Shown here: piece by piece, positions 1,706 to 59,892 of the stretch
Position numbering within the stretch: the stretch's first letter is position 1
Layout of the letters: every line of letters starts with the position of its first letter
From: Dysidea avara
Lineage: Eukaryota > Porifera > Demospongiae > Dictyoceratida > Dysideidae
Direction of reading: 5' to 3'
DNA length: 64,000 nt
Assembly: GCF_963678975.1 (NCBI RefSeq)
Contig: NC_089281.1
Location: forward strand, 5,729,277 to 5,793,276
Position numbers and translations under genes: made by a program
The notes under the pieces: generated by a model
The model's input: only the letters and a program-made list of their open reading frames with translations
The model's database searches: none
What the model was told of the DNA's origin: nothing

Positions 1706-1959
1706 ACACAAATAGCTATTATAACAAAGCAAGCTATAATTATTATATGACTAAACATAAAACCATGCAACGTAACAATAGCCATGATACACACTTACAC
1801 AACATATTATCACTTATGTAGCTAGGAGATGGTTGTGAAGTGATGACTCATGACAAAAAGTAATAAATTACGTGCCTTAATTCAGTCTATATGCATGCAT
1901 TGCATATCCTGCAACATTAATGGAAACTTTATATTAATTAACTAATAACTCACTGGATT

Positions 1960-2870
1960 AAACAATGAGCTGACAAGTATGATACTTATATAATTCCCAG
2001 AGTTGACCAAGCCAACAATTACAATTCCCACAGATGTACATGCTGTGTATACACTTTGCAAGTTCGATTCTTCTTGAAGGTTGTGAATTAGCAATGATCA
2101 TTTAAGCCACGTACCTTGCAACAAGACCATGCACTTGATTGGTGAGTGACCAGAGAAAGTACATCTTGTTTGAAGAAAATATCCCAGTTGTAAATTAGCT
2201 TTTTATATATAATTAAGATCAGTAGATTCATCTATCCCAAGCTTAGAACATATTGTTCTTTCATTTGCTGTTACAGTGAGTAGCTAATGTATCTGCATGC
2301 TATTACAGTTAACTGTTTTCACCATTATAATACCTTGTAGGAGAAATTGGAGTTTTCCTGCATACTCATCACCAATGTCTATACGTTTTGTGTCTCAAAA
2401 TATACACCATGAATAAATTTAGCCACCTCAACAAATTAGCTAAACTCTTCAGAAAGCAATGATTGCATGGATGTCAATGCTTGGCGTACTAAATATTGCC
2501 CACATGCATATGAAATTGTTGTCTTGCCAAGAACCTTAGCTGTGTTATATGCATGGGCAGACTTGATAAGTGTAAACTTGAGCTTCCTTAAATGCTCCTA
2601 ATAGTGTATAGTAGTGTACTAACTTCTGCTTTTTGTGAATGTTGGTAATAAATTCTATTAAGCGTTATTTTTTCTATTGTACAAAGCAGTTTCATGATTT
2701 TGAAGCACTTTGGATGTTGAAGTGTTGGTATACTGCAGATGTTTTTGGTCTTCTTTCTCTGCTGTAATTGCTCCCTTTGCAAGGGATTGGACCTCAGCTC
2801 TGGCAGAAGTCAAGAGATCAATGAGTGGTATAACTGAACTTAGATATCAAGAAGCTTTACAACACTCTTT
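1960..2870 (-). pseudogene. Decayed duplicate of the GTPase-gene exon 7
   Basis: The segment is collinear with 6514-7335, the 3' two thirds of exon 7 of the lipase-GTPase gene. Matching strings include TGAGCTGACAAG (1967 and 6516), CAGAGAAAGTACATCT against CAAGGAAAGTACATCT, ATCCCAGTTGT, and near the far end CTTTCTCTGC and CTTTGCAAG. Indels and stops break every frame and the P-loop part is mutated. No copies of exons 8-10 follow it. I infer a partial tandem duplication that died. The regions 2870-3254 and 1710-1960 hold nothing else recognisable. Confidence 0.75.
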
Positions 2871-6200: not shown

Positions 6201-9200
6201 ACTGTGAACTAAAAGAACGTTTATAACTTGAAGCTAGTGATCAAAATTTGAAGACTTATACAAAGTAACATGCACAGGTTAAGACTATTACATATAATAA
6301 ATTTTCAAAGCAAAGGTGACTTCATTGAATGAGATGACTAATGGAAACAGCATCTATGCTACACAAAGAGTATGTATGGTGAATTGATACAAGCTGTAGG
6401 AAAAGTCGTAAAACTATCCTAGCTTTACGTACATGTAATTATGAACCCCTTCCTCAAAACTACAAATTCATGTATTACGTGTACTTGCTGATAACTTACT
6501 GGTATGCCAAACAGTGAGCTGACAAGTTTAGACTTTCCTGAATTGACCAAACCAACAACCCCAACAGATATGTACTTAGCAAGTTCTTCTCGAAGATTAT
6601 GTATCAGTAAAGACCACTTCAGCCACCTGGCAACAAGCCCCCTTGACTGGGGGGTAACCAAGGAAAGTACATCTCTGTTAAATATGTCATCCCAGTTGTC
6701 TGTTAGTTTCTGAAGTTTTGTAGATGCATCAATGTTCAGTTTATTGCACTGTTCTTGTAGCTGCTGTTCCAAGGAATAACTGATGTATCTGCTGTTACAA
6801 CTGACAGTTGTTTCCATTCCTTGCAGGAGAAACTGGAGTTTTCCTGCATATTCGTCTCCGACATCTACTCTGCTTGATCCAGAGTACGTACCATGTATGA
6901 ACCTAGCCACTTCAACAAATAATGAACTAAATTTCACAGAAAGCAGTGACTCCATGTCAAAATACGGCATGCTTAACAAAGCCCATACACCAACAGCAAT
7001 TGCTGTTTTGCCAATAGCCTGAGCTGTATCTCGAACAGACTTTACAAGAGGCACACGCACTTGAGCTTCCATGAATGCTCCAAGCAACGTACTGCATACC
7101 TTTTGCTTCTTGCGTATATTAGTGATCATATCAAGCATCTTTCTATTGTGAAGAGTAGTTCCACTAAACTTTTGAGCTGATTTTGCCTTAACCTTTGAAG
7201 CATGTGATGTACTAGTAGAGCTACTTCCACCATGTAAGCCATCTTGTTCCTCTTTCTCTGCCACAATTGCTCTCTTTGCAAGCTTCTCCAGTTCAGTTCT
7301 GGTATGGGACAAGAGATCTATTGGTGGCATTACAGCACAACCTAAAGGTGATCTTGAAGTAGCAGGATAGACTGAAGAGATAGGAATTGAGGTTATAGCA
7401 TCAAGGCAAATATGAGTTTGTGAATCTAAATAATCTGTTAAATACTCTATTACATCACATTGATATGCAGAAATATCGGGGGACCATTGTGAACTAAAGG
7501 AGTAATGAGAATACACCATTACAGATGGACCATACACTGGTATAGGAATTTCTATTCGTTGACCAGGTTGGCAAGATGCTGTACTCCTTCTGCGTTGTTG
7601 TCCTCGACCAACTGAACTACCTGATGCAACTCTACGTTTGGGTTTAGCTTTTTTTATGGGAACTTGATGATTGGTCAGGGTGTGCTGGTGGAAATGATGT
7701 CCGTTTTGATGTGTTCTTCTTGCTTTTAACCTCAGATTTAGGTTTGTATGATGAGTCATTAGGATGAGTAGAATGACGATGCCTGCTAAATTGCTGTGAA
7801 TTGCGTTGGCTGGCTACAACCTCAGAGTACAGCACTCGATTATGCGTTGGAAAAACGTATGGACCACTAGCTGTGTCGCTGTCTTCTCCATCCAATAAAT
7901 GTCTTGTTCTAAGTAACATGTTCACAATACGACTACTAAAAGTGTGAGGCCTTTGAAAATCTTGTTCGTGAAACCTTTGTCCAGTAGCCAGTCTTCGAAG
8001 AGCTAAACTCATTCCATTCAATAGCATTTCAGATGGTGCAAATGGTTCATAAGGAAGATCAGAGGTAATAAATGCTTTACAGCAATCCTCTATGATATCA
8101 TCATCTCCACAGCCCAGCGCATAAAACAGACTTTCCAGTGGAACAAGTTTCACCACTTCTTCCAAAAAGTTACGGATGATTCTCATCTTGGGTGACTGCC
8201 TAGACCTGTCACTTAGTCGCTGCTCTAACAGAGCACTGAGAAAAGCTAGTTCGATAATCTCTGATGGCTTGTGCTTGGCAAGTTGCTCTTGTCGAGCAGT
8301 AATTTCATAAAGCTGTCAAAATAATTGACATGACAATGAGAATATACATTGCCTCCTCATTATCATACAGTATACATACAATACCACAGGGAGAGTAGGG
8401 AATCACAATGATTTGTGTTTTCCCTTCACAAAAATATCAACTAAAGCCAGCCCTATTACCACAGCATCATAGCCATACATGGGAAAATCCCTCATTGGCT
8501 GTAGTCATAATTTGTTCAATAAAAAGTAGGGAGTCTCCCACAGGTACGAATACAACCATGTTACTCTCTTGTCACACTATGTATTTTATAGTGCACTGAT
8601 CCCTATTTATTTTTATATTATATAGCAAATACTTGTTAGTCGTCACTGTTCCATTAGGATATTTCAAGGGTCGAGTCAGGTGACTGTTTTATTAGAGTAT
8701 TTTGCACCAACCAGGGTCACAAAATTAAGCGCATGGTTACAAAACTGATTGTTGTTAGTGAAGCTATATCATATCCTTTCATACTTATAAATAAATAGCG
8801 TATAAGTACATATATACCTTCTTAGTGACTTTCAATGAAGAACTGATTGGTTCACAAAACTGACTCTCAACAACCACTTTGACTTGATCTGCTGTGACAG
8901 CAAGTTCATCTGGCTTGCATTGTAAGTTAAACTGCACTGATTTCTGGTTTGTTGCCATAGGACTAACAGACAACTTCTGCAAAGACCCCACTTGAATAGA
9001 GTGAACAAACCAAAGATTATCTCCTTCCAAAGTGATGGCTAGTTCCTTGCCATGTTGATGAAAAGCTATGGAATTGGCAACTGGCTTGGTCATTGCTACA
9101 TCACTGACTGTTTTGACTGGATCAGTGATTTTTAGTTGTGGTGGTTTGCATAAGTGACTTGCAAACACACAGCTGAAATATTCTTGAATGTTGTGCTATG

Positions 9201-9325: not shown

Positions 9326-12300
9326 ACGCACGCACGCACGCACGCACACAAATTAAGCCTAGAATGTTTGCTCTCCTATAGATTATCATATTTATACAGC
9401 ATTTTACAAAACAGTTAATATTGTAAGTAAATACATAAATACATGTACATACGTTGCGTACATTCACACACTCACCTTCTTAAACAAATCCTCACAAGAT
9501 AAGGTTTCAATTTCACCAAATTTTAGTGGACCAAGTTCCTTCAACATATTTTCAGGGGCCAATTGCTTCCATGACAAACCACTTTTTACATTAATGAGAT
9601 ACTGGTTACCAATAATTTGAAATGGCAACTCATCTCCTTGAATGATCAGCTCTGAGGTATTAGCTAGTATTATTTCCTTTAGTTTCTTCAACTCATCACA
9701 TGGCGAACTAATAGACTATACACAACCATTAGTATAACAAAGTTTTACACAATTCTTTACACACCAATGTTTATGAAATTTGTTCAGATATTATGTATGC
9801 AGACATATAGATTACATACATGTTAACAACATTATAAAAATTGGACAACACTCAAGTATCCTTCTCCAAGGGTGCTTATCAGCTCTAGGTAAAATGGTTT
9901 TGGGGACTTATTGCAAAGGTACTGCGTATGTACGTGTACATATGGGTTGTATGTACCTCCTGAAGATAGAATCGTTGCAGTTCTCCCAAGTAGTGCAAGA
10001 ATGGCTTGTAATGAAGAAGTTTCTTCTGCAAGAAAGAAAGCATTTCTCATCAAAAGGATACAAATTTACTGCTATTACCAATACCTACATACGATACACT
10101 ATAGTACATGCCTGAATAGCTCTCACACACATACACACTGTAATGAATGCACATGCATATATACAATTAGAAAAAACATCTAGTAATATTTCTGCTTTAA
10201 ACTTGCCACAGCAATTAAAGTTTTAAAATTACACAAATACGTAGTACATACTTTGATTAGACATGTTCACCTAAACATATACAGTGCTCCCTTGATTATC
10301 TGACCCCCTTTGGACCAATACATGTTCAGATAATCAAAAAGTTTTGATAGTCAAAGCCCATTCATTTATAAACAGAGCCCTGTTCAAATTAGGGCTGGGA
10401 CGAAGCTTCGAATGCTTCTTGTGTTCGAAGGTTAAGTAAACTTCGAATTATAAAAGTATCCTTCGAAGCTTCATAATCCACCCATAGTATACAAAAGAAT
10501 TACAAATATACGTCGTTATCTTTATTGCAGCTGCTTATTCCTCTTGCGTGATCAATGTTCATCTCTTCGCGATCGATCTTCGTGTGCCATGCCCACTTTA
10601 TACCATCGCAGTTCAGCTTGCTACCATAGTTGCAGCCTTAAAACACATTATAAAGTGATAGATAATACATAGAAAGCATACTTTTAGCCATTTCTCGGTG
10701 TTTACCTGTGCATGATTGCAGTATAGCTGACACGCCCATTTGCAATCGATCGATCGTGTCATTCAGTACTGCTGCTATGTACTTTCCAAATGCTTACAAA
10801 CTTATTAAATAGGTTTAGAAAGATAAAACCTAAGAAGGATGTGCATGAATACAAGAAAACCTGCAACTTGAAAGCTAACACCGAAGCTTTGAATGTTCGA
10901 ACATTTCATTAGCGAATATTCGAAGGTAAATTTCAATTTCGTCCCAGCCCTGTTCAAATACTCCAATAGAACATACATATTAGACAAAATACTCTAATAG
11001 AGCAGTCATTTCTACTGTTCAGATAACCAAGTATTCGGATAATAGAGGTTCAGATAATCAAGGGAGTACTGTACTTCAAAGTTAATATGCTTGGAGGACA
11101 GAGGGTACATTGGTGAAATAACCTCAACATCATCTTAAGTCATGAAATAAAATATTACGGCACTCCATAATTTACAATTTATGTTTGTACGTAGTTGGTC
11201 ACCTTGTCAGTAATAACTAGTGATATCTGTTTGTTTGCAGCACACAGAAATATCTGTGGTATTAAATCTGACTTCAAATACACTTGGTGTAGGGTAGCAG
11301 TAAAATCTGGGTACTTCTGTACCAAATCAGATATAAATGGCATATTGATGATGGGTTGTCCAAAGGTCAGACACATGGTGTTGGCCTTTAACCCTTTATT
11401 ACCGAAGTTTTTTTTTACAAAACCGCAAGTGTGAAAACTTTTATGGCTTGTGTGAACTGTGTGCAGTACGAGTGGACCCCACCCATTAATTAACCCATCA
11501 AGCTATATACCGTTTGATAGCCATCTCTCTCTTCTACCAACACAGCTAGAACACTTACAGATTACACACACAACTCACGCGCTATGAAGCGAAGAAAACG
11601 TATCTTCTCCGTATCGCCATGGCATTGAAAGATGGGCGCCGCCATCTTACTAATCAATGCGATGACATCATACTATTTATTTTTAGAATCCTTATCACGC
11701 GGGGAATGGAGTAATTCTAAGTAAAGCCTCCTAGTAGCAGGGAGAAGGCGAACATGGAGTTTTAAACAGGTATTATTGTTTTGTATACGCTATTTTATAT
11801 TGCCAAGTGCCATAACTTTCCCATGCTTCTTCCTATCGCCGAACGGTAAACTTCATTAGAAGCGCCCGGTCCTTCTGAGCAGTTTGGTAGTAATTTCAGC
11901 TTCGTAGCCCCTAGGAAAAAGGAGTTATGGCTCCGTCTATAAAGGGCACTCGTTATGGCAATATATTAGCCATTCGATAATAAAGGGTTAACTCATCAGA
12001 ACCAATGAAACTGTTATCCTTCCAAAGCACAGATGAGACCATACAAGCTAACAGACCTCCAGATGAGAAGCCTACATGAACAAATCAAAGATTATACTTG
12101 CTGGAAGATGGCCCATATACCACACTGAATCACTATGAGTATACATGTACATACGTACATACATATGTACAGTAGTGGCTGTATATACACGCACACACAA
12201 ATGCAGTGAAAGTGAAGTCTGTAATCTATTGATGATGTAACACGTGCCTATAAATCAAATTTAAACCATCACGTGGTGTGTGATTTTTCTTGGACAAATA

Positions 12301-15300
12301 TTTGTAAGCCATCTGACCCGTTGTCTTTAACCAACAAACAGGAAGATTTTAAGGAACAGTTGCAATGGTTCCTTGAGTCTACTGAGAAAAGTGATGTGAA
12401 AATGTTGTCACATTATAGACAAGAAGTGCAAGAAGTGTACAAAGACCTTTCCTTGGGTGGAGAATGACAACAAGAGCAAATTCGACAAGATTATACAAGC
12501 AGTCAAGTAATTCTGTTCACCCCAGATGAACAATCTTTACGAAAGATATGAGTTATACCTGGACAACAGTAAACCCATTGATGCCAACTAAAACAGAAAA
12601 CTGACTTGATAAAGATGGATACTCACAGTCATTCGGTCTCCTTGATGATGAACAACTTCTCCACGAGACTGAGTTAACCTTACCACAAGACATAGGGAAA
12701 CCTCTAGATAACATGTTAAAGAAATGAGTAAGTATAAACAGTGGACCTAGGGACTGGGGATCCAAGGACCCGTAGAGATTCAACTTTTCATGGAATTTTA
12801 CATACTTTGCAATGTTTATATACATTCTGTCATTTTACTAGACGCCTCTGCTAGTCACAGTGGCTAATCTCACATAGTCAATCAACTTTATAATTGTTTA
12901 CACTTTGTTTAATTCAATTAGAAAGAATAAGGATAGAATGTTTATACATTGTGAAGTACGTATGTAAAATTCCCAAAAATTCCACAAAACGTGGGGTCCC
13001 CTTTGGTCCCCGGGTCCACTGTTTATACCTACCCTAAAGAAATGGGTGCCAAGCAATCTTTGGAATGTGACAAATTTTGACACATATATGTTACAAATTG
13101 CAAGCTGTCTTCTCATGTGGGGCAATGTGGTAGTAACACAAATCAAGGGAGTGTGGACAACTCTATGTCATTTGTCACAAGTTCAATCATTTCGGCAGAA
13201 GCAAAGTGACACTGATGCATTGCTTGAGTTCCACAACACCTCAATTACTGGAATATCTCAGCCACCAGCACAGCTGCTAATGGGAAAAATCTATGATGCA
13301 ACCTACCCAAGGTTCCACTAAAATTGACACCACCAAACAGTAACATTGTTACAGAGAAGCTGCAGTGTTGACAGCCACAACAAAATTTGACAGGATTATT
13401 AACACTTTACCACCATGTACAAAGATTGACAGAGTGAGGTACAATAAGTAGGGATCTCCTTGAAAGTGATGCACACCGCCTAAAATGCTGCCTTTAAAAT
13501 ACATCTTATGCGAGAAAAATCACCTTTACAGTATAATAATAGTCCATCTAACATAAAATACAGCTTTAAAACAAGAAACACTTACAGGCAGCTGCATACG
13601 GAATTTGTCTGCCAGCCTACCTGCCTGAACAAATGGCATGGCCACCATTTTAACAAACTTACCTGTGGGATGTGCCCTTTGGGATTCCAATGAGTGTGTG
13701 CCCTCTGCGCCTTGTCTTTCCTTTTATCTTCAATCAGGCTGATTGTCATCTTCATGTGACAAAATCATATGAAGGCATTAATATCAACACTTTCCTTGAG
13801 CAGCATATTTAGATGCCAAGATTATGTAAAGTGGTTTACGTAGATACCTGTAACTTCACGGTAGGCTTGAGACCACGCCCATTTAATGATCTTGGTTTAA
13901 TAACTATCAGGCATGGAGACCACACCTCTTAACAATCTATTTTCTCAATCACAATGATGACACCTATTGGTCTAGCTGTATTTATAATGCTAAAATATGA
14001 AATAGTGACGTGCCCCTGGTAGGTGAAAGGGTGACTTGAGATACTCTAATACAGCAGTCACCGTTATAGAACAATCACACGTGTATAGCTGTATGCTATA
14101 ATCCAAAGCAACTAATATATTTAAAAATGATTAATGTAAAAATGAAGTAGGGATCTAAGCAATAAAAAGTAGTAAAACAAGAGATGAATGATGGTATTAC
14201 AGCATATAGCTTGGTGTGACAATCTGGCATTGAACAAATAATTGTTAGGGATTTTCTAACAGAGCTATGTTGTAATACCATCATTCATCTCTTGTTTCAC
14301 TACTTTTTATTGCTTGGATCCCTACATTAAATATACTAGGATAGGCACCAGTTACTGTTATTTCAAAGCACTTGTTGTTGTATTGTTCAAAATTCCAATG
14401 GAACAACAGGAGGCATCTAAAGGAAACGTTGAGAATTAGGACCAACAATATTAAGATCAGTGAAGAGTGCGAGTTACCTACTAGTACTGCACATGATGAC
14501 AATTTGATCAGTGTTAGTGCTGTCTTCAATTTCAGACAATCTAGATATGGAAGGATTATATAAGGTACAGAGATTACTGAGCTTATGTTATTGTAAGCTT
14601 TTGATTTTCATTGATTTGTTGTTAACTCATGCATCTAAGTAAATATCATCAAAAACTGCTCATATTTGGTGCATGGGTTATTGCAGTGCAAATATCTTAC
14701 TGAAGTGTGTGAAAGTAAATTACAGTCATATAGTAAAATCATACTACATGTACTAGAACTACATAAATATACGTACCTGTAAAAATTACTCGGTTCTTTT
14801 CAACGAGCAACTGCTTTACTAAAAACCGAAATGGAACTTCTTTAGCCTGTGGCTCAAGACCTAAAAACAACAACAATAATTCAATTAGTATAATGAAATA
14901 CATGCATGCATGCCTTTCTCAAATCTGTATCCACACTGCTGCTTTTCACACATTTCAAACCACGAGGTAAAATTCTTCTCTCCATTGAAAGCAATGATGA
15001 ATGTGTTTTGGCTCTTAGCAATTAAGTAATGATCTGAAATGGACATGGAGACTTCTTCAAGATTGTGATCGCTGCTTTGGACTTTGTCCTCAAAAAACAA
15101 CTTGATATTTTCATGGGTATATTTACTGACAGCTTCACAACAAAGGCAAGCATGGTAAACATTTTCTTTACAAAATATCGGCTGAGATTTTTGAGATTGC
15201 TCTGGTAGGGTTGATTGTTCAACACATTTGTCATGACTGAACTTCTCCACTTCAGTAATTCCATACTGCAAAATTTCCTCTTTGTGAATCAGAAAATCTT

Positions 15301-15532
15301 TTTCGAATAAATCTGTCAACTTCTTTTTAACAAAGGCAGCACTACACAGTTGATTTTCCATTGCAGATGTTATAAAAACACTGATTGCTTTCTCAGTTTT
15401 GTGAATGCGTTCTTCCTCAGTTTCATATAAGAACCCATCCTCGTTTGTTCGCAGGTCAGCCAATCTCCTTTTCAACTTAGACAAAGCTGAAGAATCCTGG
15501 GGCAGTTGTTCTTTTTGTAATTCTTCATCCAT
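3255..15532 (-). CDS. Lipase (class 3)-dynamin-like GTPase fusion protein, 10 exons, disrupted
   Basis: Exons, transcript order: 15532-14914, 14860-14777, 12071-11203 (split by an element at 11388-11991), 10025-9957, 9715-9476, 9195-8818, 8312-6500, 5688-5504, 5423-5252, 3515-3255. All junction phases agree if the element is removed and one base of a T-run at 7649-7655 is dropped; the product is then about 1,362 residues. Residues 1-160 are charged and helical. Residues 170-350 resemble a class-3 lipase: a IIAF strand, the nucleophile elbow GFSSGG (235-240), TFGQP, and YLKSDLIP with Asp303. Residues 350-1130 are unassigned, with a basic low-complexity stretch around the frameshift. The GTPase follows: GLVNSGKS (1140-1147), RTT, DFPGVDD (1187-1193), TYAD (about 1250). 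Lipid hydrolysis controlled by GTP is inference. Start: first ATG after an in-frame stop at about 15583. I do not recognise a named orthologue. Confidence 0.8.
4292..4498. mobile_element. MITE of the TTCCACACACATCC family, copy 2
   Basis: The arms read GATTTGCAAAAAGGGGTC then TTCCACACAC and are repeated inverted at 4460-4498. It lies in the last intron of the lipase-GTPase gene. Confidence 0.75.
5753..6184. mobile_element. Inverted-repeat MITE in a GTPase-gene intron
   Basis: AATGTACTGCATTG near 5753 is matched by the inverse of CAATACAGTACATTG at 6170-6184. The interior has several GAGACC-type and TTTATT repeats (for example GTTTATTTGAGACC). It fills most of the intron between exons 7 and 8. 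Confidence 0.6.
7649..7655 (-). other. Homopolymer frameshift in the lipase-GTPase gene
   Basis: The plus strand has seven T. Upstream (in transcript order) the open frame encodes HPDQSSSSHKKS then stop. Removing one base makes it read SSSSHKKAKPKRRV and on through about 1,150 bases of open frame to the P-loop. A one-base sequencing or assembly error is the simplest cause; a true mutation in this allele is possible. Confidence 0.8.
9292..9350. repeat. CA/CG-type microsatellite
   Basis: ACAC repeats grade into ACGC repeats. They lie in the intron between exons 5 and 6 of the lipase-GTPase gene. The open frames across it are repeat translations. Confidence 0.9.
10282..11071. mobile_element. 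pogo/Tigger-like MITE carrying a nested hAT-like MITE
   Basis: The ends are CAGTGCTCCCTTGATTATCTGA and its inverse at the right (CAGATAATCAAGGGAGTACTG), flanked by TA on both sides. TA target duplication with CAGTG ends fits Tc1/mariner-pogo elements. It is interrupted by a second element at 10390-10951. The whole unit lies in the intron between exons 3 and 4 of the lipase-GTPase gene. Confidence 0.8.
10390..10951. mobile_element. hAT-like MITE nested in the Tigger-like element
   Basis: The ends are AGGGCTGGGACGAA and TTCGTCCCAGCCCT. An exact 8-bp duplication GTTCAAAT lies at 10382-10389 and 10952-10959. An 8-bp duplication is the hAT hallmark. The interior repeats TTCGAA-type strings. Confidence 0.85.
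11388..11991. mobile_element. piggyBac-like MITE inserted in the lipase coding exon
   Basis: TTAA stands at 11388-11391 and 11988-11991. Between them is a 596-bp unit whose ends are CCCTTTATTACCGAA and its inverse with one mismatch. TTAA target and CCCTT ends fit piggyBac elements. Removing the unit and one TTAA joins GSDEL to KANTMCLTFG in one frame, so the insertion is in coding sequence. Reading in from upstream, the frame stops within about 13 codons. The unit encodes no transposase. Confidence 0.9.
13187..13443 (+). pseudogene. Decayed Ty3/gypsy integrase fragment
   Basis: One frame reads ALLEFHNTSITGISQPPAQLLMG in outline (a run of the type LL-x-NT-x-SPAQLLMG). This is the end of the retroviral-type integrase core in gypsy/K02A2.6-like retrotransposons. 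After a stop another frame gives KFDR-x-LPP-x-DRVR, the usual following segment. No LTRs or reverse transcriptase are seen. It lies in the long intron between exons 2 and 3 of the lipase-GTPase gene; the rest of that intron (12080-13180, 13450-14140) holds no feature I can support. Confidence 0.6.
14148..14324. mobile_element. Short foldback MITE (TAGGGATC ends)
   Basis: TAGGGATC and AGCAATAAAAAGTAGT are followed by ACAAGAGATGAATGATGGTA, and the same segments return inverted, ending GGATCCCTA. A partial relative lies at about 55590-55680. Confidence 0.75.

Positions 15533-21790: not shown

Positions 21791-59892
<38,102 letters not shown>

What the first reader, a model, noticed from the sequence alone, without database searches (positions are those of the whole stretch)
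11388..11991. TTAA transposon sitting inside the lipase coding exon
Removing 11392-11987 and one TTAA restores an uninterrupted frame from GSDEL to KANTM across the catalytic core. With the element in place, the frame stops after about 13 codons and no good GT donor lies at the junction. This allele is therefore probably lipase-null, or the element is spliced as a new intron. It could be a polymorphic knockout of one haplotype or a case of transposon-made intron birth.
Basis: seen in the sequence. Interest (0 to 1): 0.85.

Follow-up and report, generated by a model that had tools for sequence, protein, structure and literature searches.

The report
Jumping DNA interrupts a lipase exon
A short, recently active piggyBac-type jumping element has landed inside the catalytic exon of one of two neighbouring lipase-like genes and very probably breaks it; this is a clean example of an ordinary event, with no sign so far that the element has become an intron.

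Summary
Window 11388-11991 is a 604-bp element with inverted ends (18 of 19 bp) beginning with TTAA. It splits a minus-strand class-3-lipase-like exon after its GFSSG motif. The empty site is seen directly: a tandem paralogue about 26 kb away has one TTAA at the same codon, and 15 of 15 homologous proteins found read straight through. The 40 closest copies, all that were scored of 285 candidates, are full length, 38 with TTAA on both sides; exact termini occur 223 times genome-wide, control 0. This copy has 4 private substitutions in 603 positions, so it is young. The genome also holds 3.9-kb piggyBac elements with a 560-aa transposase frame whose one end matches the short element at 38 of 39 bases, the likely source of transposase. 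The gene was under purifying selection (dN/dS 0.16 against the paralogue). Of 1018 GT-AG pairs tested none restores the exon. Most likely a recent loss-of-function insertion buffered by an intact paralogue. Polymorphism and RNA processing could not be tested.

The parts
11388..11991 (+). 604-bp non-autonomous piggyBac-type element (MITE) including both TTAA copies
   Evidence: 40 full-length copies fetched from the same genome, this one included
11388..11391 (.). TTAA target-site copy, left
11988..11991 (.). TTAA target-site copy, right
11392..11406 (+). terminal inverted repeat, left (CCCTTTATTACCGAA)
11973..11987 (-). terminal inverted repeat, right (CCCTTTATTATCGAA on the minus strand)
   Evidence: the last 39 bases of the element consensus match the 3' end of the piggyBac elements L049, L051, L052 at 38 of 39
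11992..12071 (-). lipase exon 3, part before the element: serine motif (GFSSG) to GSDE
11203..11387 (-). lipase exon 3, part after the element: KANTM to ITDK, donor AAG|GTGACC
14914..15532 (-). exon 1 of the same gene (ATG at 15532; GC donor AAAG|GCATGC)
14777..14860 (-). exon 2
9957..10025 (-). exon 4
9476..9715 (-). exon 5 (3' end inferred from a GTGAGT donor)
8830..9195 (-). exon 6 (3' end approximate)

Best explanation
A roughly 600-bp non-autonomous piggyBac element was recently pasted, probably by the transposase of a piggyBac family living in the same genome, into a TTAA tetranucleotide (codons Leu-Lys) of exon 3 of one of two tandem class-3-lipase-like genes. Shown: the element, its TTAA duplication, the empty site in the paralogue, the copy family, a candidate transposase with a matching end. 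Inferred: transcripts of this allele carry a premature stop after the serine motif and before the Asp and His of the catalytic triad (roles recalled from class-3 lipases), so the allele gives no active lipase; the intact paralogue makes the loss tolerable; the insertion may still be polymorphic.
For: TTAA plus inverted ends. 40 of 40 fetched copies full length (599-606 bp), 38 of 40 with TTAA on both sides. 223 exact termini, control 0. 4 private and 12 shared substitutions in this copy. Paralogue exon with a single TTAA at the site. 15 of 15 homologous proteins uninterrupted. dN/dS 0.16 and dS 1.08 between paralogues over 541 codons. PF13843: 120 matches in the genome. L051 and L052 elements of about 3.9 kb, 98.8% alike, with a 560-aa transposase frame (PF13843 E 2e-90; piggyBat 9c0f E 3e-40) and a 3' end matching the short element at 38 of 39. 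None of 1018 GT-AG pairs restores the exon.
Against: No RNA data, so a partly active or re-spliced product is not excluded. 42 GT-AG pairs keep an open frame, 14 of them keeping KANTM; the mildest in length (12002 to 11393) would cost a net 3 residues, though its donor scores -7.7, and the best-scored pair would swap the stretch after FSSG for element-coded residues at equal length. The far end of the autonomous element (TTAACCCAATATTACCTAA) differs from the short element's ends, so trans-mobilisation rests on one end and the shared terminal motif. The splice weights are recalled general consensus values, not trained on this species.
Confidence: 0.9

Rival explanations
1. The element is spliced out and acts as a new intron (an introner-like event), so the gene remains active.
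For: Introners made from short DNA transposons with 4-bp duplications are known, and some borrow splice sites from the insertion site (PMC9860276, passages). The compared parts of the gene are open and conserved. One pair (12002 to 11393) would leave an 86-residue exon in place of 89. A second sampled copy (L035) lies in a 244-aa open frame in the same relative orientation.
Against: The junction donor GA|GTTAAC scores -8.8 and the donor of the mildest pair -7.7, against 1.0 to 7.7 for seven GT donors and one GC donor of the two genes; the acceptors at the right end score -1.0 and -6.0 against -1.9 to 7.8 for eight accepted acceptors, so the first of them is not out of range. None of 1018 pairs restores the exon, and none of the 42 open ones keeps both GSDE and KANTM. 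On the gene strand the element's strongest acceptor (position 81) precedes its strongest donors (414, 510), the reverse of an intron. With 4 private changes the insertion is too young for the gene's intactness to say anything.
Confidence: 0.05
2. The element is an ordinary old intron that the paralogue and relatives lost.
For: None found.
Against: 15 of 15 homologous proteins and the paralogue lack it; it has TTAA on both sides and 39 further near-identical fetched copies elsewhere.
Confidence: 0.01
3. The gene was already a dying duplicate and the insertion is a passenger.
For: Exon 1 has a GC where the paralogue has a GT donor; an intact paralogous exon exists.
Against: The compared parts of all six exons are open; dN/dS 0.16 overall, 0.10-0.25 by segment, though this averages the whole time since the duplication; the other positions of the GC donor fit the consensus (4.0), as working GC-AG introns need.
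Confidence: 0.15

Closest known systems
Non-autonomous piggyBac elements (TTAA MITEs)
   Same: TTAA duplication, ends beginning CCC, about 600 bp, many near-identical copies, no transposase frame of its own, a piggyBac with a matching end in the same genome
   Different: Nothing in kind; only the family's sequence is its own. Whether this family has a name was not searched by sequence.
Introners (transposon-derived introns; Gozashti et al. 2022, PMC9860276, passages seen)
   Same: A short DNA transposon with a 4-bp target duplication inside a coding exon
   Different: No usable flush splice sites found, splice-like signals in the wrong order, no evidence of splicing
Class 3 lipases (Pfam PF01764 Lipase_3); EDS1 as the nearest solved structures by sequence
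   Same: GxSxG motif and core; 4 of 4 homologues scanned exceed the Pfam cut-off; 8 of the 15 homologues carry PF01764 in the precomputed column
   Different: The interrupted copy's downstream piece scores below the cut-off on its own (14.2 against 22 bits); 207-aa first exon without a significant Pfam family; EDS1 matches are weak (E 0.27)

Membership tests
piggyBac superfamily, non-autonomous element | TTAA target-site duplication | tested here: met
   38 of 40 copies with TTAA on both sides, the other two with one changed base; single TTAA at the paralogous empty site
piggyBac superfamily, non-autonomous element | inverted ends beginning CCC/CCY (feature recalled) | tested here: met
   TTAA then CCCTTTATTA on both ends
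piggyBac superfamily, non-autonomous element | piggyBac transposase with matching ends in the genome | tested here: met
   560-aa PF13843 frame in L051 and L052; 3' end 38 of 39 identical; the far end differs, so met for one end
piggyBac superfamily, non-autonomous element | actual mobility in trans | not testable with these tools
   needs an excision assay
Introner | removal by the spliceosome with splice sites at or near the element ends | tested here: not met
   by sequence only: 0 of 1018 pairs restore the exon, junction donors very weak; RNA not available
Introner | many copies serving as introns in many genes | tested here: inconclusive
   of 40 copies only L001 lies in a recognised host exon; L035 lies in a 244-aa frame without a Pfam match; spanning frames of the 40 copies (median 57 aa) are no longer than at 300 random TTAA sites of the window (median 61.5)
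Lipase_3 (PF01764) | profile match over the curated cut-off | tested here: met
   met by homologues: P0001, P0002, P0003, P0006 at 26.5-30.6 bits against 22; the interrupted copy's two pieces alone give 14.2 bits and no match
Lipase_3 (PF01764) | lipase activity | not testable with these tools
   no assay

The most novel reading that the evidence does not exclude
The element family has begun to act as an introner in this animal: the copy in the lipase exon is tolerated because it is removed from RNA through weak or non-canonical sites (for instance 12002 to 11393, a net loss of 3 residues), giving a near-full-length protein, and L035 would be a second case in the same orientation.
Probability: 0.05. 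Interest if true: 0.6.

Novelty: new member of a known kind. Interest (0 to 1): 0.22.

Why it matters
It is a well-preserved natural insertion with every stage visible in one genome: probable source transposase, young copy burst, filled site, and empty paralogous site. It gives a ready test of whether a fresh TTAA insertion in an exon is simply null or is ever spliced, and of whether tandem duplication buffers such hits. In itself it is an ordinary event.

Tried and rejected
Old intron lost elsewhere: rejected by the copy family and the empty site. Precise splicing: 41 GT donors and 44 AG acceptors on the gene strand gave 1018 pairs (acceptors at least 60 bases inside the element, introns of 40 or more); 42 keep an open frame, 0 restore the exon, 0 keep both GSDE and KANTM. 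GC donors were not tried at the element. Exon skipping: exon 3 without the element is 269 bp, not a multiple of 3, so skipping shifts the frame. Excess of copies in coding exons: not seen, on the 40 copies closest to this one, not a random sample. A relative bearing the insertion: none with the element-coded part among the 14 proteins found with the chimeric frame (identity tables only). Organism: the listings (10 of 11 papers listed, abstract starts seen; 0 papers) did not identify a 550.8-Mb assembly; I suspect a sponge, from recall only. Papers: searches gave 2 listings each and one search gave 2, none opened; (introner, piggyBac, TTAA) found 0; (5 listed; 3 listed) one paper each was looked into by passages. 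Relatives of the L035 frame in the genome: asked six times, never answered.

Full report
What is there. The stretch 11388-11991 has 19-nt ends, 95% complementary, each beginning with TTAA. On the minus strand it interrupts an open frame: GFSSGGLLACMVSSVLWKDNSFIGSDEL before it and KANTMCLTFGQPIINMPFISDLV...ITDK after it. With the element in place the frame ends after 12 further codons, and the whole read-through has 15 stops. The exon runs from 12071 to 11203, between an AG acceptor and the donor AAG|GTGACC.

The gene. Exon 1 (207-aa frame) has 19 homologues at E 0.001 or better, the best 88% identical over its whole length. Exons 2, 4, 5 and 6 were placed by comparison with the paralogue. The piece of exon 3 after the element scores 14.2 bits against Lipase_3, below the cut-off of 22, and the piece before it gives no match; 4 of 4 scanned homologues pass (26.5-30.6 bits). 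The roles of Ser in GFSSG and Asp in LKSDLIP are recalled from class-3 lipases, not tested. The nearest solved structures by sequence are EDS1 proteins, weakly (E 0.27).

Empty site. The window lies at C10:5729277-5793276 of a 550.8-Mb assembly. A protein search of that genome with the joined exon found 3 matches: the two halves here and one uninterrupted exon at C10:5714692-5714979 on the same strand, 76% identical. In that paralogue the two halves meet on one TTAA (6896-6899 of the joined stretch), in the sequence GATGAATTAAAGGCC. All 15 homologous proteins found run through the site. P0013 among them is identical to the own paralogue over their shared part, so it is not independent of it. 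The closest, P0001, groups with the window gene with modest support (0.746).

The copy family. A DNA search of the genome gave 40 scored matches out of 285 first-look candidates, at 96-100% identity, this copy included. I used all 40 with flanks: 599-606 bp long, 38 with TTAA on both sides (L010 and L021 each have one changed base). Divergence from their consensus is 0.5-2.8%. These are the copies closest to the window's, not a random sample. Exact 19-base termini occur 223 times (108 and 115 on the two strands; only the first 100 were listed) and the reversed control 0 times. The window copy differs from the consensus at 16 substituted bases; 12 are shared with other copies and 4 are its own. 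So its age is at most about 0.7% substitutions, an upper bound since unsampled copies may share those four.

Who moves it. PF13843 has 120 matches in the genome (244 candidates, 116 scored). I fetched flanks for three groups: the 669-aa frame (L047) and the 634-aa frame (L048) show no such end within 4 substitutions in 5.1 kb, while the 560-aa group does (L049). L051 331-4224 and L052 358-4274 of that group are 98.8% alike. Their 3' 39 bases match the short element's right end at 38 of 39, and a 34-base copy of that end lies inverted near the other terminus. The far terminus of both reads TTAACCCAATATTACCTAA and differs; in L049 the far end is different again. The frame matches PF13843 from position 2 to 349 (E 2e-90), piggyBat (9c0f, E 3e-40) and the transposase of 6x67 (1e-33; Trichoplusia piggyBac by recall). 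The three aspartates of the triad, as I recall them, are kept in the printed piggyBat alignment. I infer that this family supplies the transposase.

What the insertion does. Since the duplication the two genes have been constrained: dN/dS 0.16 and dS 1.08 over 541 codons, 0.10-0.25 by segment, with the two halves of exon 3 at 78.6% and 77.4% protein identity. A simple splice score with recalled weights puts the junction donor GA|GTTAAC at -8.8 and the acceptors at the right end at -1.0 and -6.0. Seven GT donors and one GC donor of the two genes score 1.0 to 7.7, eight acceptors -1.9 to 7.8; one further donor context was mistyped and not found. Of 1018 pairs 42 keep an open frame; 0 restore the exon, 0 keep both GSDE and KANTM, and 14 keep KANTM. 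The best-scored pair (12056 to 11456) gives 89 residues with element-coded residues in place of those after FSSG; the next (12056 to 11393) drops 21 residues; the mildest (12002 to 11393) is 3 residues shorter but starts from a donor scoring -7.7. On the gene strand the element's best acceptor is near its start (position 81, 7.2) and its best donors near its end (414 and 510, both 2.6), an order that would make an exon, not an intron. The most likely result is a premature stop and loss of this lipase, with the paralogue's exon intact.

Limits. From Gozashti et al. 2022 (PMC9860276) I saw passages only: introners with 4-bp duplications and varied splice-site recruitment are known, and piggyBac is named there for its preference for genes in Drosophila. 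From PMC3902484 I saw passages only.

Noticed in passing
window 10280-11073 and 10391-10951: Nested transposon-like elements in the next intron: an outer one with 30-nt inverted ends (90% complementary) and TA at both termini, and inside it one with 14-nt perfect ends and GTTCAAAT at or next to both sides, hAT-like by recall.
   Followed up: partly
window 14912-14914: Exon 1 of the lipase gene has a GC donor (AAAG|GCATGC) where the paralogue has GT.
   Followed up: partly
L035 (G000:C4:35469747-35473349): Another copy of the element sits inside a 244-aa open frame, on the strand opposite to the element, as here; no Pfam match.
   Followed up: partly
L034 and L026: Two further copies interrupt open frames of 175 and 95 aa that look to me, from recall, like a tyrosine recombinase and a LINE reverse transcriptase; no Pfam match over a cut-off.
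   Followed up: partly
window 1943-2838 and 6491-7457: Both are similar (80% and 72%) to one stretch downstream of the paralogue, a sign of a third partial duplication in the cluster.
   Followed up: no
window 31340-31993: A 654-bp almost pure (TG)n tract.
   Followed up: no
window 55338-55586: A unit of 124-125 bp repeated twice head to tail without a mismatch.
   Followed up: no
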